This document shows, one piece after another, positions 3,911-39,496 of a stretch of DNA of 39,496 bases. Positions within the stretch are counted from its first letter, which is position 1. Each line of letters begins with the position of its first letter. The translations under genes were made by a program, and so were the position numbers. Location: NCBI GenBank assembly GCA_024206195.1, contig JAAGZO010001196.1:1-39496 (forward strand), read 5' to 3'. This stretch comes from a bacterium. GTDB taxonomy: Archaea > Nanoarchaeota > Nanoarchaeia > Woesearchaeales > UBA10216. Under the pieces are notes generated by a model. That model was given only the letters and a program-made list of their open reading frames with translations, made no database searches and was not told the DNA's origin.

Positions 3911-3943
3911 CCACCTAATTTGTTACCCTTCATGAGGGGTACA

Positions 3944-5198: not shown

Positions 5199-5205
5199 TT
5201 CGTTT

Positions 5206-5213
5206 ACCTCCTT
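5206..5213 (-). promoter_or_regulatory. Strong Shine-Dalgarno site, cassette A
   Basis: The minus strand reads AAGGAGGT, a full match to the anti-Shine-Dalgarno core, with seven bases to the ATG at 5198. Most other genes in the window lack any comparable site, which points to high translation of this surface protein. Confidence 0.8.
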
Positions 5214-5227
5214 CCTGTTGTCAGCTA

Positions 5228-6866: not shown

Positions 6867-6873
6867 CTCTCCA

Positions 6874-6881
6874 ACCTCCTT
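6874..6881 (-). promoter_or_regulatory. Strong Shine-Dalgarno site, cassette B; decides start
   Basis: AAGGAGGT on the minus strand, seven bases before the ATG at 6866, matches the site in cassette A in sequence and spacing. It supports 6866 over the upstream ATG at 6905. Confidence 0.8.
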
Positions 6882-6908
6882 CCTGTTTTTATATAATCTT
6901 AACACGGC

Positions 6909-7559
6909 CTATGCCACGTTGTTCTTTGAAATCTTCAGGAATATGCTTTCAGGGTCATGTAAAATTGTCAGTTTGCCTGCAGTAAATGGTGCTTTGTGCT
7001 GCTTTGCAAATTTCACAGCCTCTTCTCTTGCAAGCACCTTAACCTTGATCTCTTTGGATTCACCACCAGGTTTCCTTATTGTCTGACTACAGATCTTTTT
7101 CTCTAACTCACGTGGCTTTTCTGAAACAAGCACTAGCTCTACACTGCCATTTGATATTGCAGCAAAACCCTGTATCTGATCCATGTACGGCTCTATTTTC
7201 CAGTAAAACTTCTCAACATAGTAGTGCCACTCAGGATTATCAATAAACCAGATTCTAAGTATAATCTCATGATACTCTGACATCTGCAACAAACGCTTGT
7301 CTGCAAAGCCATTCATCGCAGAAATCAAATAAGCATGATCGTTTGCCAGCGAAAACATGGACCTAGGCTTTCCTCGGTCTCTGTTTGGAATCTTATGTTT
7401 CTTGACGATATTTGCTGCTTCTAACAACCTAAGCTGCTGGCTAATATTCGCCATTGTTGTATTAAGCATACCCGCAAGCTGCAAAGGAGAATAACTCTGT
7501 TCAGAGAGAGATCTCAGGATATTCCATCTCTGCTCGGTAAAAAGTGCTTCTGTGTCCAT
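6909..7559 (-). CDS. ArsR-like winged-helix regulator, cassette B
   Basis: Paralogue of the regulator at 5228-5872, 216 residues. The winged-helix region (residues 6-75, recognition helix TTMANISQQLRLLE) is identical in every presumed DNA-contacting position, so both regulators should read the same operator. The C-terminal 85 residues diverge strongly, including the presence of Cys in KKICSQTIRK and a different end. Even silent positions are largely conserved in the central part of the gene, which suggests recent duplication or gene conversion. A GGGGAG precedes the ATG. The upstream TATA box and paired GTATAC sites match those of cassette A. It forms an operon with the surface protein that follows by 42 bases. 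Confidence 0.9.
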   Translation of the reverse strand: MDTEALFTEQRWNILRSLSEQSYSPLQLAGMLNTTMANISQQLRLLEAANIVKKHKIPNRDRGKPRSMFSLANDHAYLISAMNGFADKRLLQMSEYHEIILRIWFIDNPEWHYYVEKFYWKIEPYMDQIQGFAAISNGSVELVLVSEKPRELEKKICSQTIRKPGGESKEIKVKVLAREEAVKFAKQHKAPFTAGKLTILHDPESIFLKISKNNVA

Positions 7560-11492: not shown

Positions 11493-11903
11493 ATGGTAAT
11501 ATTATTTGACCAGTTTCATCTACCGGATGATATATTTGAAATCATATTCGCTACTAGTCAGCAGAGGATTGTTGCAAAGGTTCTAGTCAAGTACATTAAA
11601 GAAAATGATGGAGAAGTTAACAAGGTTGAGATGAGCCTGTTCGCAACAAAGCTGCATGAAGGCCAGCTAGTTACAGAAATCGATGAACCAGGATATGTTG
11701 GCAAACAAGTCAAGCTTTCCTATAATAAGAGACAGTTTTATGATAGAATTCTTACACCAATGAAAAGCATGGGTCTTGTTGATTACGATTTGTACAAGAA
11801 AACATACAGCCTATCTGACAAGTTCAACAAAGAAATGATGAAAATAGGGCTTATTTGGGTTAGAGAGCTTAGAAAAACATCACTCAAGATAAAAAAAGAT
11901 TAA
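11493..11903 (+). CDS. Small winged-helix-like protein of unknown function
   Basis: A 136-residue soluble basic protein. Residues 20-110 read as a winged helix: a first helix QQRIVAKVLVKYIKE, an element EVNKVEMSLFATKL, a likely recognition helix YNKRQFYDRILTPMKSMGLV, and a wing ending YDLYKKTYSLSDK. The order (helices, then GLV followed by strands) matches PadR/MarR-like DNA-binding folds, but no family signature is certain. The end (RELRKTSLKIKKD) is strongly basic. A GGGGG lies eight bases before the ATG and a TATA box is in place. Its 3' end overlaps by four bases the end of the 27.5-kb operon on the other strand, so the two transcripts converge. A regulatory link to the operon is possible but purely positional. 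Confidence 0.75.
   Translation: MVILFDQFHLPDDIFEIIFATSQQRIVAKVLVKYIKENDGEVNKVEMSLFATKLHEGQLVTEIDEPGYVGKQVKLSYNKRQFYDRILTPMKSMGLVDYDLYKKTYSLSDKFNKEMMKIGLIWVRELRKTSLKIKKD
11891..11897 (-). terminator. U7 terminator of the large surface operon
   Basis: Directly beyond the last stop of the minus-strand operon lies an A7 run on the plus strand, read as U7 by the minus-strand polymerase. It falls inside the last lysine codons of the convergent gene at 11493-11903, so one sequence codes on one strand and may terminate on the other. Confidence 0.45.
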
Positions 11904-13096
11904 AATCGCTTTCTTTTATTAAGTACTATCAAACGTACAAGGAAGAATATAGTAACTATTATAACAATATACACAGCTAGCAAAACAAAACTGAATTGCT
12001 TTTTCTCTTTTTCCTCTGCAATCTCTTCTTCTCCTTCATCATTAACATTCAGTACAGTCGATCTCTCAAATGTAAGTTTATCATTATAAGTAAACCTTCC
12101 ACTCGCGATATAATGGCCTGCTTTTTCTGGTGTAAAGTAAATATCAAAGTCCTGTTTTTCGCCAGCTTCAACCCTGAGCTCATCAGTCTCCAAAACATGA
12201 ACTATGCGATCATCCAGTTTTACATTCCCCTTGAACTTTGCCATAACCATCCTTTGTCCTGTGTTTGCAAATGTTGCAGTAATTAATATTGGCTGGCCTG
12301 TAAACGCCCACACATCACTCTTTATTCCTGCAAAGTGTCCTTTATCCAATATACCGCCCTCTTCAACCACAGTAAAGGTATGAAAATCAGATGCAAAACA
12401 CTCAGGCATAGACATCTTGACCCAATACTGGCCAACAGGAAGTTTATTGGTTGAAAAGGTTAGTTCTGATGTTCTGTCTACTGTTGGAAGTACGCTCTCT
12501 GTATCAAAGTTCTTTGTTAAAACAAGGTTTTCCTGCAGCTGATCCCAAACATCTACTGTCAGCTCCGGACTAATCCTGACATTTCCTGTATTCCTTACAG
12601 TAACACCGAGCTTAAAAGGATAGTTAATCTCAGCATCGCTAAAACGGAAAGCTCCTGCACTGCATCCTACAATTTCCCCTCCAACAACCTCAATGTTTAT
12701 GTTGCTCTCAACACCAACACTTATTGCACTTCCTGCTCTGCCGGATCCAGCTCCTTCTGCATCTGTTATGAAAACAAGTTTTCCGGAATAATTTCCGCTT
12801 TTTGTGTCTTCTGGAGGCTGAACAATAATCTTCAGTTTGTATTGCCTGTCTATTGAAAAGTTTATTCTGTCTGTATCAGGATCAAATGAAAGCCAGTCCT
12901 TTACATCTCCATCTGCTACAAAGTGCGCAAACACCTCCTCTTCTGAATTTGTGCTTATTGAGATTACTCGTTCTGCATATCCTCCCTTAAGCACCTTTGT
13001 GAAGTCAATTGTTCCGCTGACTCCAATTGTTGCTGCAGACACATAAGATACAGAAAACAATGAAACAAGAAACAAAAGCAGCATGATTTTTTTCAT
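11900..13096 (-). other. Possible internal start giving a separate 398-residue exported protein
   Basis: Codon 365 of the 762-residue frame is an ATG (13094-13096) opening a complete signal peptide, and the rest is a self-sufficient type I membrane protein. On the minus strand AAAATATAAAAGCT (13121-13134) is centred about 32 bases upstream of that ATG, the normal distance for an archaeal TATA box. Independent initiation here would give the second half as its own protein. No stop codon separates the halves, so both products may exist. Confidence 0.45.
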
Positions 13097-14188
13097 CTTA
13101 AATTTTTTCAGCTCAGGCTTAGCTTTTATATTTTGTGCTTTACGCCTCAATTTATATTTAATGAATATCAATAAAACCACTATTAATATAGCAACAAGTG
13201 CAACAATCTCATAGATTGACTTTTGTACAATACCTGCAACATTTACGCATTTGTGGTCCTCTGCATCCTGGAAAAACCAGCAGTTCAAATCAGCGCACGC
13301 GTGATCCAAAATTTGCTCGTCTTCTGAACAGTTTAGCTTTTCACATGAGTGGTTTACTGCATGCTCATCAGCTTCGCATTCCAGACTCCAGCATGCATTG
13401 TGCTTAATGTATTCATGCTCCCCGCAATCAAGCTTTATGCATTCATGACCTGAAGCAGACTCGTCTTCGCTGCAGTTAAGCTTCTCACACTTATGGTTTC
13501 TTATGATTTCATCATTCCCGCAAACAAGCCTGCTGCAGGAATGATTTAAGATATATTCATCTTCCTTGCATTCCAGCGCAACGCATTCGTTTGTTGCGTT
13601 TATGCACATCTGATTTTCCATGCATTCTTCATCTTCACAACACTCATAATTAACACAACTGTGATCAGAAATGAACTGACAGGAATTGCATCTCAGCTTT
13701 GTACAGCTATAATTCAAGCATGCCTCTATTGTTTTGCAATGACCCCCTCTTGTACATCCCGGAGCAGGCATGTAATGACTCCTGTAGCAATACCTTGATT
13801 CTGTCCCAAAGAAAACATCACTCAGCATCCGAACACCTTCAGGCACCTCAGTCACCATGCAAAGCTGGTACATCAGGTCTGTTCCATTATTTGCTTCAGG
13901 AATTGTTCCATTAAGAGATACATCAACATGTTTTTCTGGAGATACTTTGATTTCTGAACCATTATAAAAAGCAAGCTGAATCTCTGTTAAAGAATCAATG
14001 ATCTCCAGCGAGTACACCCTTATGTCCCGTGACCCTTGATTACTCATGTTTATTTCCCAGCTTACATCTGCACCCTCGATGCAATCACCGTCACAACTGT
14101 AATTAATGGTATAGAAAGATGCACTCACAACAGGACATAGTAAAATCAGTGCCATAACAATTATTGCTGTTCTTATGCTAAGTTTCAT
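11900..14188 (-). CDS. Two-part membrane protein: Cys-rich half plus CARDB-like half
   Basis: Last gene of the operon, 762 residues. Residues 1-23 are a signal peptide. A beta domain follows (24-130), then a Cys-rich region (about 145-318) with repeats of the form C-x2-[DE]E-x4-H-x-C-x3-C. A transmembrane helix at about 324-347 (IVALVAILIVVLLIFI) ends in RRK. Residue 365 is a methionine starting a second signal-peptide-like segment (MKKIMLLLFLVSLF, ending VSAA). Two or three NEW3/CARDB-like beta domains follow (392-715), then a final transmembrane helix (about 733-757) and the basic end KRKRF. As one chain the topology is outside-in-outside-in, which is consistent. The internal signal peptide and a TATA-like box before codon 365 suggest two ancestrally separate genes fused in frame. 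It starts one base after the previous stop, so translation is coupled. Confidence 0.85.
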   Translation of the reverse strand: MKLSIRTAIIVMALILLCPVVSASFYTINYSCDGDCIEGADVSWEINMSNQGSRDIRVYSLEIIDSLTEIQLAFYNGSEIKVSPEKHVDVSLNGTIPEANNGTDLMYQLCMVTEVPEGVRMLSDVFFGTESRYCYRSHYMPAPGCTRGGHCKTIEACLNYSCTKLRCNSCQFISDHSCVNYECCEDEECMENQMCINATNECVALECKEDEYILNHSCSRLVCGNDEIIRNHKCEKLNCSEDESASGHECIKLDCGEHEYIKHNACWSLECEADEHAVNHSCEKLNCSEDEQILDHACADLNCWFFQDAEDHKCVNVAGIVQKSIYEIVALVAILIVVLLIFIKYKLRRKAQNIKAKPELKKFKMKKIMLLLFLVSLFSVSYVSAATIGVSGTIDFTKVLKGGYAERVISISTNSEEEVFAHFVADGDVKDWLSFDPDTDRINFSIDRQYKLKIIVQPPEDTKSGNYSGKLVFITDAEGAGSGRAGSAISVGVESNINIEVVGGEIVGCSAGAFRFSDAEINYPFKLGVTVRNTGNVRISPELTVDVWDQLQENLVLTKNFDTESVLPTVDRTSELTFSTNKLPVGQYWVKMSMPECFASDFHTFTVVEEGGILDKGHFAGIKSDVWAFTGQPILITATFANTGQRMVMAKFKGNVKLDDRIVHVLETDELRVEAGEKQDFDIYFTPEKAGHYIASGRFTYNDKLTFERSTVLNVNDEGEEEIAEEKEKKQFSFVLLAVYIVIIVTIFFLVRLIVLNKRKRF
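13121..13134 (-). promoter_or_regulatory. TATA-like box inside the 762-residue gene
   Basis: The minus strand reads AAAATATAAAAGCT within codons for the cytoplasmic linker (QNIKAK). Its distance of about 32 bases to the ATG at 13096 fits a nearly leaderless transcript. It may be chance in an AT-rich linker. Confidence 0.35.
13225..13730 (-). repeat. Tandem Cys/His repeats of about 17 residues
   Basis: Within the first half of the 762-residue protein about eight short repeats follow the pattern C-x2-[DE]E-x4-[NDS]H-x-C-x2-L-x-C, for example CSEDEQILDHACADLNC and CEADEHAVNHSCEKLNC. The repeats lie outside the membrane just before the transmembrane helix. They could form a disulfide ladder or bind metal. 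Confidence 0.75.
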
Positions 14189-14189
14189 T

Positions 14190-15959
14190 TTATTGGTTTG
14201 TAACTGCAGAAAAAATGATTGTTCCGCTGCAGTTTCCTCCTACTCCTCCAGGCACCATTATTTTCCAGAACGTGCTGTTCACATCCTGATCATATTCATT
14301 ATCATCTGTTCTCTGGGCTAATGTAAAATTCTTCATCTTTGATGATAATGCAGTAAGGTTTTGCATTTCATCAAATTCTGTTCCGTTTGTTGGTGAGTAT
14401 TTTTCATATCCCACAGGAATTCCGCCGTTTTGGCACTTCATGGACAATTCGTCCTCTTCAACTGAACCATAACCAAGAACAGTTATATTAATTGGTGTAT
14501 TCCCAAGATTAATCAGAGACACATTTGAATCCTCTGATGTGGCGTTGTCAGGAGGTGAAAGCACCTCACTGTAAATCATATATGTTTCAAATGCATCTAG
14601 CGCAACAAGCTGATTTATGGTTGTTGTTTTATTCAGATAACCAGTAAGATTCATTCCGTCTTCTGCTAAAAAATAGCACTGCCACGACGCATTGTCTGCA
14701 TAGTAAGTAACCTCAAAAGAACAGCTAAAGTTCTTTTCATAAATAGCTGACCCTGTTTCAACACAACTTGAATTAAAGTAATGGTTGTTATTATCATTTG
14801 GAGCTAAATGACCAACAGAGGATCTGAAAAAAGTCGCATTAGTGGAGTTTATGTCTCCTGCAAAATCACCATCATAAACTGTTGCATTGCAGTAAATTGT
14901 TCTGTTTGCTCCTGGAATCAAATCAATTGTATCCTCAAGAAAGACCTCAGTTATAATAGGTGGTGCATACTCAACAAGCGTAAGATTATAGGTTAGCGAA
15001 GCACCAGTGTTTAATACATCATTTGTACAGTTTACGCTCCAGTTGTACTGTCCTGCTTCAAGGGATTGAGAGAAATTCTGAGTAGTGTAAGTTACAACAG
15101 TATCATTGCTTATGTTTATCTTATTGTTTAATATTAGGGTGCAATTCAAGATGTCAAAATAAGAGGCAACATAATATTTAAATGTTATTATGCCTGCAGT
15201 TAACAAGGAATTGTTATCCGGAGATTCTAGAGTTATTTCAGGAATAGTTGAATTGACCTGTGAGGTGACATTATATATTGCTTTTGCATTCAAACCCTTA
15301 AGAATTACCCCATCACTAGCGCAACTAGCTCTAAGAGATATGTTAGAAACACCTGGCGAATCTGCAGTGACTGTCCAGGTTGTAGTGTTCTGTTCAAAAA
15401 GAGGGATTATATTACCTATCGGATGAACATAATCATCTCCCTCTACAGAAAATACATGATTTGTGAAATTTATCGTAGCATTACAATCCAGTCCATCTGC
15501 TCCTCCAATTATTGTCACATTTATAGTTACATTAAAGGTGTCTGTCAGGTTGTATACTGTGTTATTAATCAAAGAGATTATTGTTATGTTTGGCTCACTT
15601 GACCTTGTCATATTGAGTATAACATCCAAATATGTTGTTGTTGGAAGCAGTGTTGTATTTGCATTTCCATAATGAGTTGCATTCCAAGAAGTCACAATAA
15701 CTGTGTCTGCATCAGAACCAACAACAGATGCTGCGTACGCACCTGTTGCAAAAGGAGGACCCCAGGTTCTTGTCTCAACAAAATCAGATGAATTTGTGAC
15801 ATTGATTGTGACCTTAGTGTAAAGTGGCATCTGGACCATGTTAATATCATAGATAAAACCGCGAACATTGTGCGGTGCAGGAGGAGCTACTACTAAGTAT
15901 GCTAAACCAATCACCCATGCAAGCATGAATGCTATTCCAACAATTGATTTAATTTTCAT
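14190..15959 (-). CDS. Secreted Ig-like surface protein
   Basis: A 589-residue exported protein. Residues 1-25 are a signal peptide (basic MKIK, then a hydrophobic core). Residues 28-115 form a carboxypeptidase-regulatory-like domain (PHNVRGFIYDIN, then TGAYAASVVGSDADTVIVTSW) that also occurs at the start of the 798-residue-frame gene upstream. Next come Ig-like domains, including one of the operon's Cys-pair type with ILNCTLILNN and YNWSVNCTND. The C-terminal third is beta-rich with several cysteines and ends GGNCSGTIIFSAVTNQ. Unlike its neighbours it has no C-terminal membrane helix, so it is released or held by partners. Sequons are dense. Its ATG overlaps the previous stop as ATGA, and the next gene starts one base after its own stop. 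This indicates a translationally coupled subunit of the same assembly. Function unknown. Confidence 0.83.
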   Translation of the reverse strand: MKIKSIVGIAFMLAWVIGLAYLVVAPPAPHNVRGFIYDINMVQMPLYTKVTINVTNSSDFVETRTWGPPFATGAYAASVVGSDADTVIVTSWNATHYGNANTTLLPTTTYLDVILNMTRSSEPNITIISLINNTVYNLTDTFNVTINVTIIGGADGLDCNATINFTNHVFSVEGDDYVHPIGNIIPLFEQNTTTWTVTADSPGVSNISLRASCASDGVILKGLNAKAIYNVTSQVNSTIPEITLESPDNNSLLTAGIITFKYYVASYFDILNCTLILNNKINISNDTVVTYTTQNFSQSLEAGQYNWSVNCTNDVLNTGASLTYNLTLVEYAPPIITEVFLEDTIDLIPGANRTIYCNATVYDGDFAGDINSTNATFFRSSVGHLAPNDNNNHYFNSSCVETGSAIYEKNFSCSFEVTYYADNASWQCYFLAEDGMNLTGYLNKTTTINQLVALDAFETYMIYSEVLSPPDNATSEDSNVSLINLGNTPINITVLGYGSVEEDELSMKCQNGGIPVGYEKYSPTNGTEFDEMQNLTALSSKMKNFTLAQRTDDNEYDQDVNSTFWKIMVPGGVGGNCSGTIIFSAVTNQ

Positions 15960-33300: not shown

Positions 33301-36300
33301 GTTGTTCCAACATTCCAGCAATATGCAGACAAATCATAATCAGCCCTTTGCTCATTGGATCTGCCTTCCCATGTAAAGTTCAGCGTAGTTAGCCTGCTTA
33401 CATTTGCTGAAATATTGAAATGGAATATATGAATGTCATACTCGCTGTTTGCATCAGCAAGGGCTGTGTCCCAAAGGGCATCATTGCTGGTTGAGATTGC
33501 AGTATAATCAGCACCTGTGGCTTCAGAAGTATATTCATAAGGATTTGGCGGGTTTGAGTCCCTTTCGGTTTCATAAGCCAAGTGCCCCATGGACACAGAG
33601 TAGTTAGAGCCAACTGAAATTGGGTCAACAGCAAGATACCATGGCCGAAGCTCTGTAAAGACCCCTGAATTGTATGTAATCTGCGCAGGACCCATCTCAT
33701 AAAGCTCTGGTGTTACAAGTGGTGGTAGGACTGAGTAAGTGATGACAGAATTATTTTCAAGGTCATTCCAGGTTAGTATTTTCTTATTACCGGACTCTGT
33801 AACAAAAGCTCCGCTGCTTTCAGTTACTGTAAACTCAATTGGAAGGATCTCGCTGAAATCAAAGCTGTCTGTGTCAACATATGAAACAAGTTGTATTGAT
33901 GAGTTGAATGCTCCCTGCCAGGGATCAGTTGTTACTGGTGTTGATCTTAGAATATCAAACTCATAGTAGCGCATTACAGTGAAATAAGAAATCATTGTAC
34001 TGTTAACATCTATTCCTACTGCTTCAACGATTAAGCTGTAGTTTCCTTCAAGATCTGTTTTCGCATAACTTGCTTCATAAATTCCAGGTTCTGTCTCTAT
34101 TATAGTATCATGTGATGATGAATACAATGTTGTGCTGTTATCAGGTGCTGTAACCTCAAGAAGTAAATCTGCCTCTTCAACCAAATAACCCGCAGAGTCA
34201 AGAACAACCATAATCATTTCTGCAGTCTCGCCTGGTCTATAGACTGATTTTTTTGTGTTTATAGTTGCAATTCCTGTTTCAACATATCCCGAGCTTTTGT
34301 CTGTCAGTTTAATAGAATATTCTTCTCCAGGGATAAGATCTCTTGCTTTTTTCCAGTCCCCAATGCAGGTCTGTCCAAAGAAATCCCAGTCTTCGCATTC
34401 AAAAAGCTCAGTTCCTTTTGCAATGGCACTAACTGATGCACTTGCAAACTTAATGCGTGTAGGATCAACTGAATATGCATTCAGAATCTTCTTGTTTCCA
34501 AGATCATATTCCTGCTTGTCAAAGCTGCTCAGACCTAGTTCGACCTTTCCTGAAAATTCCAGGCCTTCGAATCTTATTTTATTCAGTGGAATATCATCAA
34601 CAGTAATCTCAAAATCATAGCTGTCTATATCCAGCTCAACACGTTCCCTTCCAAACGCAGATACTGAAGCTCCATGCATCCCCGTCTTGGATACTTTTTC
34701 TTCACGAACCTCTTTCACAAGATCCTCATTTTTGAAAAATCGTGCTGTGAATCCAAGTTTCTGTCTATTATGGTCTGTTATTTCAAAAAGAACCTCTTTT
34801 TTTCCTGTAAGTACAAACAGAGTTACATTATTGCTGTATGCAGCATTCTTACTATCATTTACAATGAACATTATTGAATCTATTCCAGTGTACTCTTTTG
34901 TTGGAACAAACCTTACAATTGATTCATTGAAAGTAACATTAACATTTCCAGGGATTGTTGAACTAAATGTCAAATAGTCATCCTCAGGGTCCATGACATA
35001 ACTCGAAAGATTCAATTCTTTGCGGCTTCCCTTCAAAATTACCTGGTTTTCAACATTTGACAGGAAAACAGGAGGCAGATTTTCATGCTCCTCTACTAAT
35101 ATTGTGATCTGTTGTGTAGTGCTTAGGTTATTATCTGTTGCCTCTATGAAAAGAATAATCAATCCAACAAAACCAATGTCAGGTCTTAACTCAACTAGTG
35201 AATCATTCTGCAGGATATTTATGTTCTCTGACAGGCTAACAGAGTAGGTCATATTGTCACCATTCTCATCAAAGAAGTATTTGTCTAGGTCTAGTATCAG
35301 TGTCTCGTTCTTTTTTATTATGAATCGGTATTCTTCTGAGTCCCAAACAGGAGCCTTGTTCTCTGATTCATTAAGAGGGAGTATTATTACAGTTGATGTG
35401 TCGAAGCTTGAAAGTATGTTAACTGTTTGCTGGTCAAAGGTGTTCTGTTGCCCGCTGAATGCTGCGTTTATCAGGTAGTTGTCTGGCAGAACAGGTGTTG
35501 TGTTCCATTCAAATGAAGCATAACCCATTATATCCGTTGTTTGGGTTCCAATCAACACATTGTTTCCATAGAACTCAAGCGAACTTCCTTCTATTGGACT
35601 CTCATTTTCATAAACAAGCCTTGCCTGTATTAAGAAAACTGTACCTCTTATTGCCTGCATTGGTGTTATCAATAGCTCTGATATCCTTGTTATGATATCC
35701 TGTGCAGGCTCTATGAAGCTTGCTGTCAGTGTATCCCATTCGCTGTAGTACACCTCTGTGAAAAGATCATCCTCTTCAAGGCTATAATCAACATAAATAA
35801 TCTGTGCGCTTAGCTCATTATTCTCTGTTGTACCATATCTTCCAATGAATGAATAGAATGTTTCATTCCATGCATTATGCAGCGGCTCTAGGCTGATAAA
35901 GTTACAGCATTTTTCTGCTCCAAAACAGACTGTTGTCGATGTATCATTTTCAATTGAGTATGTCTGCCAACGCGTACATAGATTTGATTCATTAACTTCC
36001 CAGGTAAACTGAGAGTTTCTTATTGTCAAATCTATTGTACTGTCTGAAGTGTCTACACCATCATTATCCGCATCCCATGATGTTCCGGATTCATATTCCA
36101 GCTGCACTAATATCTCATTCGTTCCGTTATAGATAGGAGCAGCGGATTCTTGGTGGTCGTTGACACTAGAATTGTCCGCTGCTCCTTTAATTGTCGGAAT
36201 TATCAAAGAAATACTTATTGTTAAGAATAGTACAACTAATAAGAAGAACCAAGGATTCCTAGAAGATGCTCCCAAGACCCCTTTGGTATTAAAACGTTTA

Positions 36301-36338
36301 CTAGACGCTTTCGCTACTACATTTACACTTCTCTTCAT
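18306..36338 (-). CDS. Giant 6010-residue exported repeat protein
   Basis: One uninterrupted frame of 18 kb. The ATG at 36338 is chosen; the preceding TTG adds only one residue. Residues 1-27 are basic and 28-52 a hydrophobic signal or signal-anchor segment. Residues 328-513 hold two cadherin-like domains. About 1060-1420 is a non-repetitive region starting CPFVYSYNGTNWTFEHEAFPF. From about 1560 on, Ig-like repeats follow in several classes: Cys-pair (NCSLIING with WSVNCTD), YREND/CTWD, five 97-residue NRDW repeats (3493-4073), and Cys-rich pairs. There are two DUF2341-like domains (WWDSSWKQRK near 3032, WWNLSYRYRK near 5247). The C-terminus has an FN3-like domain and two GWN modules (near 5817 and 5919), with no membrane helix. 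Sequons are extremely dense, about ten in one 97-residue repeat. It lies 29 bases behind the 954-residue gene. I infer a giant glycosylated adhesin or surface fibre. Confidence 0.92.
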   Translation of the reverse strand: MKRSVNVVAKASSKRFNTKGVLGASSRNPWFFLLVVLFLTISISLIIPTIKGAADNSSVNDHQESAAPIYNGTNEILVQLEYESGTSWDADNDGVDTSDSTIDLTIRNSQFTWEVNESNLCTRWQTYSIENDTSTTVCFGAEKCCNFISLEPLHNAWNETFYSFIGRYGTTENNELSAQIIYVDYSLEEDDLFTEVYYSEWDTLTASFIEPAQDIITRISELLITPMQAIRGTVFLIQARLVYENESPIEGSSLEFYGNNVLIGTQTTDIMGYASFEWNTTPVLPDNYLINAAFSGQQNTFDQQTVNILSSFDTSTVIILPLNESENKAPVWDSEEYRFIIKKNETLILDLDKYFFDENGDNMTYSVSLSENINILQNDSLVELRPDIGFVGLIILFIEATDNNLSTTQQITILVEEHENLPPVFLSNVENQVILKGSRKELNLSSYVMDPEDDYLTFSSTIPGNVNVTFNESIVRFVPTKEYTGIDSIMFIVNDSKNAAYSNNVTLFVLTGKKEVLFEITDHNRQKLGFTARFFKNEDLVKEVREEKVSKTGMHGASVSAFGRERVELDIDSYDFEITVDDIPLNKIRFEGLEFSGKVELGLSSFDKQEYDLGNKKILNAYSVDPTRIKFASASVSAIAKGTELFECEDWDFFGQTCIGDWKKARDLIPGEEYSIKLTDKSSGYVETGIATINTKKSVYRPGETAEMIMVVLDSAGYLVEEADLLLEVTAPDNSTTLYSSSHDTIIETEPGIYEASYAKTDLEGNYSLIVEAVGIDVNSTMISYFTVMRYYEFDILRSTPVTTDPWQGAFNSSIQLVSYVDTDSFDFSEILPIEFTVTESSGAFVTESGNKKILTWNDLENNSVITYSVLPPLVTPELYEMGPAQITYNSGVFTELRPWYLAVDPISVGSNYSVSMGHLAYETERDSNPPNPYEYTSEATGADYTAISTSNDALWDTALADANSEYDIHIFHFNISANVSRLTTLNFTWEGRSNEQRADYDLSAYCWNVGTTGWELIDTDSDGSTTDVWWTKEITSGFDSYVNQTESEKWVYMMARFEHYVASCPFVYSYNGTNWTFEHEAFPFSVIGALEERTHDRLAYLEEVDGDYRIQIREELNEVSFVDDFDFYVVDHKGDGFVMPDIDGNMHTIQNLTSPKLCYDKYNFDCLNNVLVRDGVFWRDDFYEVMDVDDKSTWENEVVLMFDRPKDAEHGKFFLNVMKQPIITSAWVYYIRSIGENNWWLWEKLMRIPFLSKLLRASIAEGVDLKVDVWTGEEWRPIGNIKAGRETMDDFLFSVDLSDIEGEKVNIRLISSTGFYEIDYVAMDYSVDEEMIVHEVIPYHAVFNNKTDVYSKIAREDGDYASFTTGDIIDLRYKAPEKTEDWNRDHAVSIKGYYNFIKYGNNSISGFVKGLFSPWMNSVVSPKSIPKIMYPHSGNSNTLRTDYAEVVVEYYSLLTMNLSAPPEDYTMYLYNNTPRNITYTCNLSSDVDVDSISLYLTDDKDSNYAYNDTCSVSGLGGTCSWLKNMSVGNYTWNCLGENIDGEIAWGSNRTLVLNYTYIDSPVVVIKAPNGTIGDHTPSLNITLDALVDTLWYNIDGRENTTICNNCMGDIVKFLVVNESSYIINVYSNNSIGNIRENSSSFNLSMSGTYYDDYDDNSSIAEYDGTIWSTGIVSFTGDVGVTSNGNFIAHSINLTSTIEEIIDITWSTSGTDTTNNISIEVSFDDGASWYNATNGEGIQDVYLTETLLYRVLFATDDSNTITLQDLSITWGDPAPPNIILVGPDNNTLSTIVDITFEYDVTDTSSEILNCTLDLNDGQIRQNNQSYVDESSTNSIDMSLFEAEFFWFIECTDSSLNNGSSEIRKLIIDYTDPTLDYELPTPEDNDFLNTSELVVNITHTELHPGTIELQINGLPNQSRTYEAGSNKFTNFSGLFEDGVYNFSVFINDTHANYDSLPNRTVTIDTTFPAMTYEIPTPSNESNQTQDNFIVNVSFIEENPDTILLFINEVLNETRYYSGNFTNFSLINLDEGAYNYYVVLNDSARNTNRSGEQVVNIDYTPASLFLENPPEEGYDNTGIPTFSYNVTDNFIGVENCSLIIEDLINQTNYSIQESATQNFSQPMENGTYEWGVQCYDYTDNLNVSKIRNLTVDTTLPVVSLESVNDSQTAINKQVCINATVTDTFSGVFEVLAEIDKPSSGLVNFTLENDSICDSAGGDVYAAVVDNNEEGNYTWIRTFAIDKASNQELVTPLEPTNWSAVSQVFISASMLEPTVNVTLNESDELLTYSFIQECQVFCSLSSTDPCEGVFIKSQLKDIVWEDITDISGYLTSNSSFFECGQIAIGASCNATFNLTSNMTSGDNDLPLRCHGNSTNAPIDFSADINVTINDHPSAAFAYPDDGIWLHGTEQLDASSSTDDRNLDLYTFEVDNNVGFDSSTEICSGSDETCMFDTESPGSCSEESLSCYLRLNLTDGDGLLNSTVITIGIDNIGPTSVLDRPLNGTNYTGSSHTINATVIDLGSGINFTNFSYRENDLSEWSPACSDLDGEAPFDCTWDISSLPDGNYYQIKVFSTDYEENPGANDTHYNITLDRTSPFIHLEKPLNDSWNLDDIIFFYNVSDEHSSISNCSLILDSVVNVTNKSITKNQSLNFSVDNLDEGNHTWRVRCVDFLGNENSSETRLIKVDVSGPVSTLVMPQNLSNISATAYSTNASSYDSVGIGVNSTTFWYRENDESEWQFICTNFTAPYLCNWDTGSLSEGTFYEIRVGTNDTLGNIGTNDTHTNITLDRTPAMINLESPENNTYDVFGHITFNYNASDALIDIANCSLIINGTINLTDTTISEDVTQSFQQDFENGTYLWGVNCTDLAGNINSSETRNLTVEPDMDPPWINLTFPTNNSIDSDGNVDFQFNVTDELSGIWNCSLIINGIFNKSNETAIAEGQINAITQTNFDTGQYNWSINCTDDSGDRNVGSSYAYNLTVQIASVIVVNLSSDQPSYERGEIANLSTTVKDEFDNDLDLDVIMDVIKGNTTIPWWDSSWKQRKPIMINSSSDQEDVLIEVNLSGLDGNIQSCNNEIRIIKTDGQFNIGSMRRSVTAGDDYNFCMVWFRANVTTGVDSTSFFAYYNNTNAESPGNTESRRIFSSVESGEAGGLIAFGAGYNVNSGSYSDTLSDNNVYYGVGRINGFIQNVDLGAYIRLNYSFPDLKITDQDVASLNFSITYCHSNDVAVPITCVGAMTGAPNNPVNAELYNFETSIWDTIGTFSQDGSSPNEQTKAFSEESSIDDYIDDDTLKVSIRYETDATMQATWGNEDGSFALDYATFEVFYYETINDTVSANGTMQELMLSEVDSTGPDGLWTYEWDTFNKSFTNYSAVSLAYGSGYGNETDYALFEILPDTTKPYTILNSPSNDSWNSTNDIEFYYTPADNSFHFSNCSLIIDDLINQTNTTPILYEQQNGFTVDDIYDGSYNWSINCTDYAENANKSEVWLLHIDTTFPLIELYNITEENDTYFNRDWIFVNVSIFDINEDNVTFFLFNSTDLVNETMLLVGNRSINFTELSNTNEEYYYNVTVKDKAGNSNSTLTRLLTLDSMWPTVEFGENIEENNSYFNRNWIYVNVSAYDLNEDNITFFLYNSTHLVDKETLPAGTRDYNFTGIADADEEYYYNVTVYDKAGNSNSTGILFITLDSTSPVVDFGDGTEDDNTYFNRDWINVTVTVFDTNEDNITFVLFNSTHIVNETTLLAGNRTINFTDLLDTNEEYYYNVSVLDKAGNNGTTATRTITLDSLVPTASLDMPSNDSWESSSSIDLSYTPYDVNPEACVLYHNASGEFVANETNSAVENGVQDTVTLEFDDGTYDWNVWCNDSAGNYAFNESNYTFNIDTVYPEIDFDIGTEDNDTFFNRDWIAVNVSIIEDNFNNLTFFLFNSTGVVNETTLLAGNTSFNFTGILDTNELYYYNVTARDKAGNANTTLTRVLTLDSMLPTVEFGFGTENNDTYFNRDWIYVNVSAYDGNEANITFFLFDSAYDLVNETTLLKGNRSFNFTGLLDTNEEYYYNVSVMDTAGTSNSTPVRKITLDSISPTINFTIPTPANETNQTAGTLTINVTHYDVNPDSVILFFDGSPTIRKYSTAFTNITLTDIDDGDYAYYVSINDSAGNSNMTEIWFVTVDSTPPFVDLEIPLNDTFTDNPEVVFRYQVSDDLLTIENCSLLIEGVINKTNHTVTKDVSQNFTQTFEDGNINWSVSCSDTLGNTNTSETRLVKVDTSFPQFTDPNLNTTNASIYEYVCLNITVTDTFSGVNTVTAQIELPSKDIQPVEMSDSATTLCDGENGNNVYSVEYAASQRGWHNWTFAVANDTAGNENSTLVGFSWNSTSVGSVTVNLTYPEDDIELNESEPDLNYTYEHACEAVCDLTKQNCSYVHIIAEYNVSLSSHITTTSQFLISNNDSYDCGNLTAGGDPCLYNFTIRSSLDAGDKSFRVRCKANSTDVGEYYSSESIVINTNDHPNATFTYPENGTILHAVEMLNASSSIDDQGLQNYTFELDDNPLFTSPTLLCNTQDLNCSFNTSDQSQCSQESYDCYLRLNVTDNDGLRNSTQIAVMIDNNGPTATLDLPSNLQNISENATVINATAVDLGIGVETLLFEYREDDEAVWQFICTNSTEPYECLANMTGLTDGQTYEFRVSANDTFGNIGDYDVHQNITINRTGPFAYMYLPRYMENISSETFEVNVTIEEIFTPVSEVRFDYRANDEDSFSFACEDTDGTEPFECTWTITGLSDGITYELRAIAKDIYGNGGAFDVSTNITIDMSSPAVNLEEPLDLDLNPSNLSFYYNTSDALRAVANCSLIINGTINQTDDSIAVGVTQQFDGLNFDEGQYNWSVNCTDDLGNENSSEFRTVVIDKLGPVSVLDLPSQMENISIDTFTVNASVTDAGIGVAHVTFEYREHHLSSWKEICNLSSPDYECTWDTGSLSEGTDYQVRVWANDTYRNVGDYDTHLNITIDRTVPFITLVIPENDSQDADGDDILFGYTVSDDLLEISNCSLSINGSVDIDYSITKDILQTFTFSGLEYGNHSWYVNCTDTAGNTNISNPRNIEIAGDTDPPLINLSYPTNGSTLGSNDVTFWYNVSDLLTDISSCTLVINDTINMTNESAIVENQLNSFDVNDVYDGRYRWYVNCTDTALTPNTGNSSVYEVNVIESTTIVVTLPSTRVTYERTAIEGEIVNVTTISTDKYSNPFPTNITSSIIVGNSTIPWWNLSYRYRKEINISNINNGTIIANYTINHSIETITLINESRLQETGADLRVIYLDDNTNYFMELNRILYNLNTTDTRVLFRTQNDIEIDNSNVRYYIYYGNSTVTDPPANKSEVYFHYDSFDTNTLSSYNTTRAFDDPDEDVDGTLTHDAAALTIDYTGTQDYGKSIRDESKSLTDVEIDVHQEFEQLPGTALTAEFELGARVTGDTYYFFKIQSQSFFNSEIGRYNEGSSTSLLTKKLSNYATGNTYHLKFIVYDVNTTTVNLRVYINDEEVMSVNDSDIGNRITAAGGFGTGSTQFIGSWDNLTVRRYIPDEPVTLTGEEEQIILMESGETSEAGIFNFTFNSLNLIYGNYSIVSLASRPPSYNNGIGFRFFNITTDLTPPAISLTSPENYFNTTDNTFNFNWTADDYVDSNITCNLTFDGIVNTSNIDSFDETLTNVTIGILPEGTILWNITCVDDSNNSNTSNMWNFTIVDSPDNVTVEIEDDNETVILAWEQKDYAAEYFVYVKDDFSSEFSSTPNVTTTEQSWQDTTANESTFRFYKISTNKGATNKSGDILMGKHGIELYDGWNMLSMSLNITNGTIDNGTNDGYDLAVKPVACIDAIWRYNESLENPWEQLTYEDSSWIPAGENSKNFTRFDSTGGYWVEVTGSCNLTIVGFVPEENVNTSLISGWNTVGWYSPNSSTLPINGDVAYPVDVEPTESVQAIDRYNALTDRFEVTMFFSGWGWWPAWDNQDFTSLEPGKGYYFDATESSIWKHDPNT
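19150..24110 (-). repeat. Second copy of a ~1500-residue domain superblock
   Basis: Domain order: IPTPANETNQT domain (near 24087), Cys-pair Ig, TFSGV domain (near 23440), Cys-rich domain (near 23110), DHPNATF/YPENG domain (near 22820), two YR-type domains (near 22420 and 22110), Cys-pair Ig, YR-type (near 21520), two Cys-pair Ig, a YER linker, a DUF2341-like domain (first Trp at 20598), an NYSIVSLA segment and a Cys-pair Ig. It matches the block at 25870-30440 in order apart from one extra YR-type domain. Confidence 0.75.
24120..25862 (-). repeat. Exact 291-bp repeats (five NRDW units plus one Cys-type unit)
   Basis: Equivalent codons of FNRDW units fall at 25801, 25510, 25219, 24637 and 24346. 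All differences are 291 or twice 291, so the intervening Cys-type domain is also exactly 97 residues. Each unit reads FNRDW-VNVS, then FFLFNST, NETTLL-GNR, LDTNEEYYYNV, DKAGN and TLDS. Adjacent units are also similar at the DNA level. Confidence 0.9.
25870..30440 (-). repeat. First copy of a ~1500-residue domain superblock
   Basis: Domain order: IPTPSNESNQT domain (near 30414), Cys-pair Ig, TFSGV domain (near 29790), Cys-rich domain (near 29450), DHPSAAF/YPDDG domain (near 29160), YR-type (near 28740), Cys-pair Ig, YR-type (near 28150), two Cys-pair Ig, a YERGE linker, a DUF2341-like domain (first Trp at 27243), an NYSAVSLA segment and a Cys-pair Ig. The offset to the second copy is 6327 bp at the first domain and 6645 bp at DUF2341; the 318-bp difference corresponds to the one extra domain. 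Confidence 0.75.
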
Positions 36339-36367
36339 CAACGACCACTTTCAATACTAATGATTAA

Positions 36368-39232
36368 TTATAATTTTTTTGAGTCTTTGATTTTTTTGTG
36401 AAGATCAAGGCACTTTCCATATACCTCTGACCTGAATTGTGTAGGTAGACCCTGATAGATTAGCTTCACTTTGGGATAAAGCAAACGTGCTTCATACTCT
36501 TGCCTATTTTGAAGACAGAAATGCGCCTCGCTGATTAAACTGTTCAATTTTATCAACTTTTCAACATCCCCTTTTTTGTGTCCATCACCAAGCCTCTTAT
36601 TTATATCCGCAATCATAGGGTAAAGCTTGTCTGATATGTCTCCCTCTAAATTGTTAATATGGTCATACATATCATTAAGTAGCAGGTATGAATCCTGCTT
36701 ATAAGCCCCTTCAGTTACTTCTGGTTGTGCACCCTTTATATTTTTTGCGAATATCTTAGGGAATTCCATCTCTTCTCGCACAAAGAAGAAATAATATACT
36801 CCCAAAAGCACTATTGTGCTTAGTCCTAGCCAGACGAATAGCGAGCTTAATTTACCAAAACCAAAGTTATCTTTAAAGAATGTTCCTACAGAGAAACCAG
36901 TCACTTTGCTTGATTCCATGCTGTAATCATTGAATGCTGTCAAAACAACTGATTTTGACTTTTTAACCTCTTCAACAGGCACAGTTGCGTGTATTATATA
37001 CTTGATTGTTTTACCTTCAAAACCAAGCTCAAAGAAACCCCACTTAAGCACCGGATCATTCTCCACAATCTCATAACCAGATGTTAAAAGTTCTATATCA
37101 CCTGCACTCTCTACAACTGTCTTAGGTATCATCTCCATAACAAAGATGTCGCTTAAGGACTCAGGATCTTCATAGATTATGTTCTTTTTTATCAAAGTGT
37201 TATCTTGTGTTACCTTATCCAGATACTCTATTGTGTACAGCTTAACAGATATTTCTACTTTTACCTTCTCCTGCAGCTTCTTATTGAGCTTTTCATAATC
37301 CTTAGTGTCGCTTTCCTCTGTTATTGTTCCTTCGAGGAACTTGGCCATTGCCTCTTCAATGATTTCATCATTTAAGCCCTGTATAAATTCAGCTTGTTCC
37401 ATTATAGATACATCAATTGGTGTTGCCTGCCTTACTTTCTTAGAGTCAAGCTCTATGTTCTTTATGTCAGTTTCAAGCTCTCCCTGTGTTGAGTATGAAT
37501 CCTTTAATGCTTCTAGCCTTGCTTTTACACTCTCAATCGTAGACTTTGACCTGCCTATTTCTTCAAGTATTCCCAGCTCAGCTATCAGCTCGCTCTTTGC
37601 TGTGTCACTTGTCTCCTGGAGATTTTTCTCTGCCTCTTCAAGGTCTATTAACAGCGAATCTGCTTGTTTCATTGAAATATCTACAAGTGGTACAAGAGCT
37701 GGTGGAAGAACCTTAGGTGTTTCATCATCAACATTTGTTACTGGCTTTGAAGATGATGAGCTTCCTGTTTCTGATGTTGCATAAACCTCGTCTGACAACT
37801 GCCCTCTGTTTCCTGCAGTATCCATTATTGCAACCTTGTAATAATAGGTTACCATATCTTCGGCTGATGTATCTGTAAATAAAGTTCCATTTACTGTTCC
37901 ATAGAAATCTATGTAGTTCACACCAGGTGTTGTTGAACGATAGATCTCATAGTATTCTACATCTGGTCCATCAAAGAACCATTCCATCTGTATATCTCCA
38001 TTTTTCAGGCTTGTTGCTTCCAGGTTTATTGGAATTGATGGCTGCGATGTGTCAACTAGGAAAAGTTTTCCATCTGTAACTATTGTTCCTGTATTGCCAT
38101 CAGTATCTGTTCCTGAAAAGTAAAAGGTTCCTACTTGATTATCATCCTCTGGTCTTATTATCATGTATCCAGTCCAAAGACTATCTTCTCCTGTAAGAGG
38201 AACCTGTCTGTGTGAGCCAGAATCAAGTGAGTATGCAAGATAAGGTTCTTCATCCATATTCTTTGATGTGAGCAAAGTGACCTCTATCACTCCTGCCTTT
38301 ATAGGGCTTATATCACTCATCTGCACCTCGGCTGTTGGCAACAGCTTTACCTCAAAGCTAATGTGATAAACAGATGCAGTTACATGACCAATTGTGTCTT
38401 CACACTTAATGTAATAGTTCTGGCTTCCTTCTGAAACAGTGATTGTCTTGCTGTGAATTGTTTTGCCTGTAACCGCAAACTCAGTCATGTCTGAGAAGTT
38501 GCTGGCTGAATTATCACTGAACCTACATGTTGCGTTTTCATTTGTCTCTAGGTATAATGTTGTTAGTTCGCTTGTCACTGATCCCTTTGGCGAATAATCA
38601 GTTATCTCTGGCGGTGTAGAATCTGTAAATAGCGTTCTATTTCCAACAGCAAGTTTGTTTCCAGCTTTGTCTGCACATTCAACTGCCCAGAGGTGCTCTC
38701 CATCAGGCATTGAAATAAGCATGTCATTAAGCCAGCCGCTAACAACTGCACTGTCTTTTGCCCGAATATTCCATCCAGACTCGTTTGTGAAAAGACTGCA
38801 TTCCTCAAGATTTGTATCAGCTGGTGTGTAACTGAATGTTACATCATCATAACTAAGCATTACATTGTCTGCTGGTGCATTCAGTGATATTCCTGGCAAT
38901 GTTATGTCAACAGTAAGTGTTCTGGCATCAGTTATTGTTGTTTCACTGTTATTGTTTGTGCAGCTTATCTGCCATGTGTAGCTTGTCTCTGATAATGTTT
39001 CTGTAAAGCTCTGCAGCACTCCTTGCATGATTGAAAGATCAGTTTGAATAATAGAGCTGTCAATAATCAATGAGCAGTTGTCAACAGGCACTGTATCTGA
39101 AACAAGATATTCTATAGTTGCCTCTTGTGCGTTCAAGAACCTGTTATCTACTGTTTCAGGGCTTACATAAGGTGCTGCAGCCACTAAAGGCAACATCAGA
39201 AGAGCCATTAAGAGTAACATTAGGGCTCTCAT
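36368..39232 (-). CDS. Ig/FN3 membrane protein with coiled coil and cytoplasmic helical tail
   Basis: A 954-residue type I membrane protein. Residues 1-19 are a signal peptide. Two Ig-like domains of the same Cys-pair class as in the giant protein follow (VDNCSLIIDS with WQISCTN; EECSLFTNE with WAVECADKAGN), then two more beta domains. An FN3 domain lies at about 405-495 (MEWFFDGPDVEYYEIYRS, then YYYKVAIMDTAGN). A coiled coil runs from about 525 to 640, then a beta domain (VKLYTIEYLDKV through KYIIHATVPVEEV). A transmembrane helix is at about 795-817, and a cytoplasmic helical domain of about 130 residues follows. That domain's end resembles the C-terminus of the coiled-coil protein at 10263-11420. 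The ATG overlaps the stop of the RHH gene as ATGA, and the giant gene follows by 29 bases. I infer a membrane anchor and cytoplasmic link for the giant protein. Confidence 0.88.
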   Translation of the reverse strand: MRALMLLLMALLMLPLVAAAPYVSPETVDNRFLNAQEATIEYLVSDTVPVDNCSLIIDSSIIQTDLSIMQGVLQSFTETLSETSYTWQISCTNNNSETTITDARTLTVDITLPGISLNAPADNVMLSYDDVTFSYTPADTNLEECSLFTNESGWNIRAKDSAVVSGWLNDMLISMPDGEHLWAVECADKAGNKLAVGNRTLFTDSTPPEITDYSPKGSVTSELTTLYLETNENATCRFSDNSASNFSDMTEFAVTGKTIHSKTITVSEGSQNYYIKCEDTIGHVTASVYHISFEVKLLPTAEVQMSDISPIKAGVIEVTLLTSKNMDEEPYLAYSLDSGSHRQVPLTGEDSLWTGYMIIRPEDDNQVGTFYFSGTDTDGNTGTIVTDGKLFLVDTSQPSIPINLEATSLKNGDIQMEWFFDGPDVEYYEIYRSTTPGVNYIDFYGTVNGTLFTDTSAEDMVTYYYKVAIMDTAGNRGQLSDEVYATSETGSSSSSKPVTNVDDETPKVLPPALVPLVDISMKQADSLLIDLEEAEKNLQETSDTAKSELIAELGILEEIGRSKSTIESVKARLEALKDSYSTQGELETDIKNIELDSKKVRQATPIDVSIMEQAEFIQGLNDEIIEEAMAKFLEGTITEESDTKDYEKLNKKLQEKVKVEISVKLYTIEYLDKVTQDNTLIKKNIIYEDPESLSDIFVMEMIPKTVVESAGDIELLTSGYEIVENDPVLKWGFFELGFEGKTIKYIIHATVPVEEVKKSKSVVLTAFNDYSMESSKVTGFSVGTFFKDNFGFGKLSSLFVWLGLSTIVLLGVYYFFFVREEMEFPKIFAKNIKGAQPEVTEGAYKQDSYLLLNDMYDHINNLEGDISDKLYPMIADINKRLGDGHKKGDVEKLIKLNSLISEAHFCLQNRQEYEARLLYPKVKLIYQGLPTQFRSEVYGKCLDLHKKIKDSKKL

Positions 39233-39390
39233 TTCTTCGTCACCTCATCTATCATTGCTTTGTCCTTTTTCACAGCTTCTTCTATTGCCTTCTCAAGATA
39301 CTTACCCAAAGGCACACCCTTCAGAACAGAGATTACCTTAGCTTGTGTGTGCAGATCCTCTTTTAATCCTATATTTACACGCTTTGCCAA
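39229..39390 (-). CDS. 53-residue ribbon-helix-helix protein, operon leader
   Basis: A small gene starting with TTG at 39390. It reads TLAKRVNIGLKEDLHTQAKV and then VLKGVPLGKYLEKAIEEAVKKDK. This is the ribbon-helix-helix pattern of CopG/Arc/VapB-type DNA-binding proteins: a short strand KRVNIGL, helix 1, a turn at KGVPLG, and helix 2. No ATG or GTG exists in this frame before an upstream stop, so TTG is the only start. A GGTG lies six bases before it and the strand begins two residues later, as the fold needs. The stop overlaps the ATG of the 954-residue gene (ATGA), making it the first gene of the operon. Palindromes AGTATACT and TACTATAGTA lie at the expected transcription start. I infer an autoregulator of the operon; no toxin partner is visible, so an antitoxin role is unlikely here. 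Confidence 0.8.
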   Translation of the reverse strand: MAKRVNIGLKEDLHTQAKVISVLKGVPLGKYLEKAIEEAVKKDKAMIDEVTKK

Positions 39391-39448: not shown

Positions 39449-39461
39449 TTATATAAATAGT
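39449..39461 (-). promoter_or_regulatory. TATA box of the 27.5-kb operon
   Basis: The minus strand reads ACTATTTATATAAC. Transcription would start near 39430, leaving a leader of about 40 bases. No other clear promoter is seen before the giant gene, so this box may drive the whole operon. Confidence 0.6.
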
Positions 39462-39496
39462 TTACTCTTTTTTATGACTTTTATGACTTTTAGAAA

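What the first reader, a model, noticed from the sequence alone, without database searches (positions are those of the whole stretch)
11900..39390. A 27.5-kb six-gene surface operon in a small-genome-type archaeon
The genes are joined by four-base or 17-base overlaps or gaps of 1 to 29 bases, all on one strand: RHH, 954-residue anchor, 6010-residue giant, cadherin/PGF-pre-PGF, Ig protein, Cys-rich two-part protein. Five of six are exported and three carry C-terminal membrane helices. Shared domains link members: Cys-pair Ig in three genes and a regulatory-like domain in two. This looks like one extracellular machine encoded as a unit, and I do not recognise it as a described system.
Basis: partly seen in the sequence, partly recalled or inferred. 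Interest (0 to 1): 0.82.

Follow-up and report, generated by a model that had tools for sequence, protein, structure and literature searches.

The report
Conserved giant-surface-protein operon in DPANN archaea
A run of six neighbouring genes in an uncultured tiny archaeon encodes a 6,010-residue secreted fibre-like protein with its probable membrane holders and a small regulator, and parts of this set recur in the same order in related genomes, which suggests how such cells hold very long proteins on their surface.

Summary
In detail: RHH, 954-aa anchor, 6,010-aa giant, PGF-pre-PGF protein, Ig protein and Cys-rich two-part protein lie on the minus strand with short overlaps or gaps. G034 keeps it all, with one extra 149-aa gene and the two-part gene split in two.

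The unit is built from modules. An RHH lies upstream of 30 of 37 g954 ORFs but 0 of 597 others. The giant ends in a ~220-aa "GWN" domain, also found as small membrane proteins. GWN genes are followed by a membrane protein with a regulatory-like (REG) ectodomain: 13 of 20 in loci not used for the REG model versus 4 of 89 controls. GWN and REG split into the same two paralogous classes. A second pair, g589C then g762C, behaves alike and is fused once.

Best reading: a secreted, sequon-rich Ig fibre held on the cell by tail-domain docking to the membrane protein encoded next. Docking, glycosylation and adhesion are inferred. It resembles Nanohaloarchaeota SPEARE giants but lacks their C-terminal membrane/ATPase part. 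Eight paper searches listed no matching system.

The parts
39470..39495 (-). tandem 9-bp repeat (AAAAGTCAT...), operator-like, upstream of the RHH gene
   Evidence: Exact 17-mer plus an overlapping 2-mismatch copy; 4 matches with up to 3 mismatches in the window against 0.66 expected. The 8-mer TCATAAAA (either strand) occurs in 13 of 27 regions upstream of RHH-g954 against 0.8 in shuffles. Function inferred.
39450..39457 (-). archaeal TATA-like box TTTATATA, probable operon promoter
   Evidence: one of 6 strict matches on the minus strand of the window; the other one inside the operon is at 15182
39229..39390 (-). 53-aa ribbon-helix-helix-like gene (TTG start)
   Evidence: Translation; Pfam RHH_3 below cut-off; homologue within 450 nt upstream of 30 of 37 g954 ORFs at >=20 bits (33 of 37 at >=9 bits) against 0 of 597 (1 of 597) other ORFs
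36368..39232 (-). g954: exported Ig/fn3-like membrane protein with C-terminal helix and conserved tail
   Evidence: alignment of 14 sequences; in 33 of 237 genomes of the phylum at E<=1e-30
18306..36341 (-). giant: 6,010-aa exported Ig-array protein
   Evidence: (Big_13, Big_7 above cut-off); 325 N-glycosylation sequons against 111.5 +/- 9.3 in shuffles
18309..18980 (-). GWN domain, C-terminal ~220 aa of the giant
   Evidence: model pLDDT 80; no PDB match at Foldseek E<=0.001
15956..18352 (-). g798: REG domain, He_PIG/cadherin-like repeats, PGF-pre-PGF, second regulatory-like copy, C-terminal helix
17960..18238 (-). REG (regulatory-like) domain of g798
   Evidence: 66 bits to the REG model (the window is in the training set)
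16394..16756 (-). PGF-pre-PGF domain of g798
   Evidence: TIGR04213, residues 533-653
14190..15959 (-). g589: exported protein with regulatory-like domain, Cys-pair Ig and C-terminal g589C module
   Evidence: 41 sequons against 11.6 in shuffles
11900..14188 (-). g762: in-frame join of Cys-rich membrane protein (g762N) and g762C
   Evidence: separate neighbouring genes in G034, G214 and G026C98
11900..13096 (-). g762C part (own signal-like helix, Ig-like domains, C-terminal helix)
   Evidence: 83 of 237 genomes at E<=1e-6
11493..11903 (+). p136: convergent neighbour
   Evidence: convergent with g762C also in G034, G007, G150 and G132

Best explanation
A conserved cell-surface operon of DPANN archaea of the Woesearchaeota/Nanoarchaeota group. 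Shown from sequence: an RHH-like gene heads the operon; a membrane platform protein (g954), a secreted giant with arrays of Cys-pair Ig and Big repeats, and membrane and secreted partners follow, with module order conserved. Inferred mechanism: RHH autoregulates the operon through the tandem repeats by the promoter. The giant is exported and probably N-glycosylated. It has no C-terminal helix; its terminal GWN domain docks on the REG ectodomain of the next gene's membrane protein (g798), which holds it at the cell. The g589C module pairs in the same way with the membrane protein g762C, and g954 is a common platform with a cytosolic tail. The extended Ig array then acts as a fibrous adhesin or envelope spacer towards other cells.
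For: GWN to next-gene REG adjacency: 24 of 24 against 2 of 542 in the first contigs (these gave the REG training set); 13 of 20 against 4 of 89 in loci not used for the REG model; 4 of 19 against 1 of 78 among further, mostly distant GWN hits. Of 14 GWN-ended giants (the window and all 13 frames over 1,900 aa with a GWN match of E<=4.1e-26), 12 are followed by REG by the model, 6 of these 12 being training cases; the two others have weak REG-like N-termini (E 0.0059 and 4e-5 in a seven-protein search) and cytosolic CBS domains. The gene after that carries g589C in 9 of 14, 10 of 14 if one intervening gene is allowed. Of 7 giants with a p251-like end in the annotated contigs, 0 are followed by REG/g798. 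In 36 GWN/REG pairs the distance matrices correlate at r=0.875; nearest neighbours are in the same class (giant or small) for 35 of 36 in both domains; in 8 comparisons within 7 genomes that hold both pairs, the giant's domains are nearer to another giant's than to the genome-mate's. g762C is preceded by g589C in 14 of 27 against 37 of 745 others, fused with it in G095, and follows a giant ending in g589C in G152. RHH-g954 link: 30 of 37 against 0 of 597. Sequon excess. Whole order in G034C19; giant-g798-g589-g762N-g762C in G026C98.
Against: No complex was modelled and nothing was measured. Adjacency and co-inheritance can come from plain operon inheritance. The giant's N-terminal hydrophobic stretch (residues 33-51) could itself anchor it. 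No fold match supports GWN as a binding domain. Among the further GWN proteins the pairing is weak (4 of 19), and 7 of 20 in the held-out set missed. Seven more frames of 2,000 aa or more with weaker GWN matches (G090 twice, G093, G103, G228, G036, G016) were not resolved. The relatives are nearly all metagenome-assembled contigs and are related to each other, so the Fisher and Mantel p-values overstate independence. In most contigs examined g954 is not seen next to a giant. g954 itself shows no sequon excess (7 against 7.2).
Confidence: 0.5

Rival explanations
1. The giant is anchored by its own N-terminal uncleaved helix (or released). g798, g589 and g762 are independent envelope proteins that share only a regulator and promoter.
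For: The giant has an N-terminal hydrophobic stretch after a long basic leader. The small GWN proteins also start with a hydrophobic stretch (by eye). He_PIG/cadherin-like repeats of g798 are widespread surface domains (spread recalled).
Against: It does not explain why each GWN class travels with its own REG class, why g798 follows GWN-ended giants, or why 0 of 7 giants with a p251-like end are followed by it.
Confidence: 0.25
2. The operon builds a structural layer (S-layer or sheath) rather than an adhesin for other cells.
For: Secreted small proteins (p251, g589C) occur in several copies beside the genes, the window's p251 and g589 are sequon-rich, and the same modules form the C-ends of giants.
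Against: The giant's length suits a projecting fibre (inference). g954 was found in only 33 of 237 genomes at E<=1e-30, few for an essential wall (at most 3 candidates per genome were scored, so this is a lower bound).
Confidence: 0.2
3. A SPEARE-type injection apparatus like that proposed for Nanohaloarchaeota.
For: Giant Ig-bearing surface protein in a DPANN archaeon (passages).
Against: No C-terminal helix, no ATPase or laminin-G domain in the giant by Pfam, and no VirB4/TraG-like match among the window proteins scanned.
Confidence: 0.05

Closest known systems
SPEARE giant proteins of Nanohaloarchaeota (PMC6642349, PMC10266531; passages seen)
   Same: Very long, mostly extracellular proteins with Ig-like and other adhesion domains on DPANN cells
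   Different: SPEAREs mostly have a C-terminal transmembrane segment and a cytosolic VirB4/TraG-like domain; this giant has none found and ends in GWN, with a separate membrane partner next door
Proteins with PGF-pre-PGF (TIGR04213) and He_PIG domains
   Same: g798 scores above both cut-offs
   Different: Here it follows a GWN-ended giant as its likely holder; no PGF-CTERM tail is seen by eye (motif recalled)
Cohesin-dockerin or C-terminal sorting-domain systems (recalled)
   Same: A C-terminal module of a long secreted protein thought to plug into a surface-held partner
   Different: No sequence relation shown; different module pairs; binding unproven
TasA/camelysin-type fibres with SipW signal peptidase (recalled)
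   Same: Small exported beta proteins beside a signal peptidase gene (SipW model 23.7 bits, below cut-off)
   Different: No sequence or fold match for p251 listed

Membership tests
SPEARE proteins | giant, mostly extracellular, with Ig-like/adhesion domains | tested here: met
SPEARE proteins | C-terminal transmembrane segment and cytosolic VirB4/TraG-like domain | tested here: not met
   No C-terminal helix by the hydropathy scan; no such domain in the Pfam scan of the two halves of the giant up to E 1. One published SPEARE has its membrane segment near the N-terminus.
SPEARE proteins | laminin-G domain | tested here: not met
   No laminin-G hit up to E 1 in the two halves; a divergent copy could be missed by the filters
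PGF-pre-PGF proteins (TIGR04213) | score above the curated cut-off | tested here: met
   g798 87.1 bits, cut-off 28
Ribbon-helix-helix regulators | Pfam RHH score above cut-off | tested here: not met
   RHH_3 14.3 of 21.6, CcdA 15.9 of 22.4, ParG 13.6 of 21.4 bits; pattern and placement fit, membership unproven
TasA/camelysin-like fibres | sequence or fold match to solved members (p251) | tested here: inconclusive
   No such match listed; model pLDDT 72
Cohesin-dockerin-like docking | demonstrated high-affinity binding of tail module to surface partner | not testable with these tools
   No complex prediction available

The most novel reading that the evidence does not exclude
A modular docking system for giant archaeal surface fibres. 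Interchangeable C-terminal plugs (GWN, g589C, perhaps p251), each also encoded as a small exported protein, select a cognate membrane socket encoded by the next gene (REG proteins for GWN, g762C for g589C). Some sockets carry cytosolic CBS or coiled-coil parts, so that contact by a giant fibre could be signalled into the cell.
Probability: 0.3. Interest if true: 0.8.

Novelty: new variant of a known kind. Interest (0 to 1): 0.6.

Why it matters
DPANN archaea are widespread and many are thought to live on other cells; how they hold giant surface proteins is little studied outside Nanohaloarchaeota as far as my paper searches showed. A conserved operon with a specific, testable tail-domain/socket pairing gives concrete binding experiments, markers for finding giant surface proteins that are broken up in assemblies, and a candidate regulator with a conserved operator-like element.

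Tried and rejected

Corrections made on checking: an earlier count said 16 of 26 giants hit the p251 model, but the listing gives 15 of 26, and the report uses 15.

Full report
OBSERVATION. The window is one 39,496-base contig for which no genome is held. The minus-strand genes are as described, with TTG or ATG choices for the starts of the giant and g798. The hydropathy scan fits export of the five larger products and C-terminal helices in g954, g798 and g762; the giant has only the N-terminal stretch and a weak internal one. Pfam finds Big_13 and Big_7 repeats above cut-off in the giant and He_PIG, Big_9 and Cadherin_5 in g798. NCBIfam finds PGF-pre-PGF in g798. The giant has 325 N-glycosylation sequons against 111.5 +/- 9.3 in shuffles, g589 41 against 11.6, g954 7 against 7.2; glycosylation itself is inferred.

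RELATIVES. The g954 search returned 50 proteins; the best 15, the window's own included, look like the family, and 14 of them were aligned. A scan of genome contigs gave 118 confirmed places, 80 of them kept; the first 19 are DPANN or unnamed archaea apart from one labelled Patescibacteria, and the rest mostly share only an fn3-like stretch. In 237 genomes of the phylum of one of them (L002, a Woesearchaeota assembly; Nanobdellota in GTDB by recall), g954 is found in 33 at E<=1e-30 (at most 3 candidates per genome scored), g762C in 83 at E<=1e-6 and GWN in 70 at E<=1e-6. Counting only strong hits (g762C E<1e-90; small GWN proteins E<=1e-49), g954 is in 33, g762C in 31 and both in 28 genomes; small GWN proteins are in 24, 23 of them with g954. 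On shared contigs g954 and g762C pair 19 times, 18 within 25 kb, and g954 and small GWN 19 times, all within 5.4 kb.

SYNTENY. I annotated ten contigs, then 25 more together with the window, then 20 and 20 further stretches. G034C19 keeps the window's order: RHH, g954, giant 3,379 aa, g798-type 401 aa, a 149-aa gene, g589 585 aa, g762N 360 aa, g762C 388 aa, then p136 convergent. G026C98 has giant, g798 837 aa, g589 590 aa, a Cys-rich 382-aa g762N, g762C 394 aa, then, by eye, an HTH gene and the start of a p251 gene; its g954 lies at the end of another contig. G180C46 has g954-giant-g798 up to near the contig end. G001C94 and G002C80 have g954 followed by the start of a giant-like protein where the contig ends. 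G003C2 has g954, a g589C gene, giant, g798, g589. G095C41 has giant, g798-type 530 aa (PGF-pre-PGF 21.9 bits, below the cut-off of 28), and one 835-aa ORF carrying g589C (189 bits) and g762C (260 bits). The window's g762 is therefore a join of two genes that are separate in G034, G026 and G214.

RHH-g954. Within 450 nt upstream of 37 g954 ORFs (two of them pieces of one broken gene in G166), an RHH homologue is found in 30 at >=20 bits and 33 at >=9 bits, against 0 and 1 of 597 other ORFs; it is missing in G010, G012 and G166. The upstream regions share an element: TCATAAAA in 13 of 27 regions against 0.8 in shuffles. The window has the tandem copy at 39470-39495. Autoregulation is inferred.

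GWN AND REG. The giant's last ~220 residues match small proteins of 212-257 aa with a hydrophobic N-terminus and the ends of other giants. The next gene mostly encodes a protein with an N-terminal regulatory-like domain. The REG model was built from 17 such proteins. On the first contigs adjacency is 24 of 24 against 2 of 542 (includes training); on held-out loci 13 of 20 against 4 of 89; on further, mostly distant GWN hits 4 of 19 against 1 of 78. The seven held-out misses are two giants whose partners have weak REG-like N-termini and cytosolic CBS domains, and G172, G208, G141, G123 and a second G235 protein, whose partners stay below threshold. Of 14 GWN-ended giants (the window and the 13 frames over 1,900 aa with E<=4.1e-26), 12 have REG next by the model (6 of these are training cases), and the gene after that carries g589C in 9, or in 10 if one intervening gene is allowed. 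Seven more long frames with weaker GWN matches were not resolved. In 36 pairs the GWN and REG distance matrices correlate at 0.875, 0.86 among 12 giant pairs and 0.55 among 24 small pairs. Nearest neighbours share class in 35 of 36 for both domains; in 8 comparisons within 7 genomes that hold both pairs, the giant's GWN and its partner's REG are nearer to another giant's than to the genome-mate's. Within-class correlation is confounded with species kinship.

G589C AND G762C. g762C ORFs, fragments included, are preceded by g589C, directly or across g762N, in 14 of 27 cases against 37 of 745 other ORFs. They are fused in G095, and in G152 a 4,567-aa giant ending in g589C is followed by g762C with a 35-base overlap. 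In G004, G092 and G230 g762C follows g954 directly, and in G214 it does so across g762N; the remaining cases have other neighbours.

OTHER GIANTS. The C-end of 15 of 26 proteins matches the p251 family model, and 3 of 26, the window included, match GWN; an alignment of 23 such C-ends matches the p251 alignment at 98% probability. The p251 family (about 240 aa, mostly ending YYFYVEL-like) lies in several copies beside these genes in many of the contigs. So three small exported modules also occur as tails of giants.

MECHANISM. Shown: sequence architecture, order and co-inheritance. Inferred: docking of the GWN tail on REG, of g589C on g762C, fibre or adhesin role, glycosylation, regulation by RHH. 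Structures did not decide it: the p251 model (pLDDT 72) and GWN model (pLDDT 80) have no clear PDB relative.

KNOWN SYSTEMS. SPEARE giants of Nanohaloarchaeota share size and Ig domains but mostly have a C-terminal membrane segment and a cytosolic VirB4/TraG-like domain (passages of PMC6642349 and PMC10266531); both were looked for and not found here. A survey of huge proteins names Laminin_G_3 as the commonest archaeal domain (passages of PMC11573180); no hit here. A DPANN paper on vampiristic consortia had no hit for giant, adhesion or surface-protein terms (PMC9723730, term search and passages). Eight paper searches (listings seen) listed no paper that I recognise as describing this operon; the library is open-access only and has no bioRxiv preprints.

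VERDICT.

Noticed in passing
window 4443-5872 and 6111-7559: Two copies of an ArsR-like HTH gene followed by a secreted p251-family gene (the two p251 proteins are 60% identical), each HTH with a TTTAAATA box 88-89 bases before its start; HTH and p251 genes recur near the operon genes in relatives.
   Followed up: partly
window 8410-10107: p565 (weak ArlF match, 20 bits, below cut-off) is found near g954 in 11 of 35 relatives' contigs; 49% and 45% identity in the two compared by blastp.
   Followed up: partly
window 3920-4423: Signal peptidase I gene (archaeal model 40 of 51.85 bits; SipW model 24 of 190 bits) close to the p251 genes.
   Followed up: no
L198 96-2261 and L197 7520-9658: GWN-ended giants (frames of 4,654 and 4,476 aa) followed by membrane proteins with cytosolic CBS domains: possible sensors coupled to giant surface proteins.
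   Followed up: partly
L131 16897-19799 and similar loci: A gene pair of a small GWN protein and a REG protein with a Cys-rich part and several hydrophobic stretches lies within 5.4 kb of g954 in 19 contigs, often just upstream of RHH-g954; in this organism it may lie outside the contig's end.
   Followed up: yes
L149 17774 to L150 11477 (G152:C4:55774-69477): A 4,567-aa giant ending in the g589C module, overlapping a following g762C gene.
   Followed up: partly
G213 and G036: Two genomes with 12 and 10 GWN matches each; none of those read has a REG neighbour by the model: another use of the domain.
   Followed up: partly
L265, L267, L269-L274 (G244, Altiarchaeales): Eight GWN matches in an Altiarchaeales genome, so the domain is not limited to one group.
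   Followed up: no
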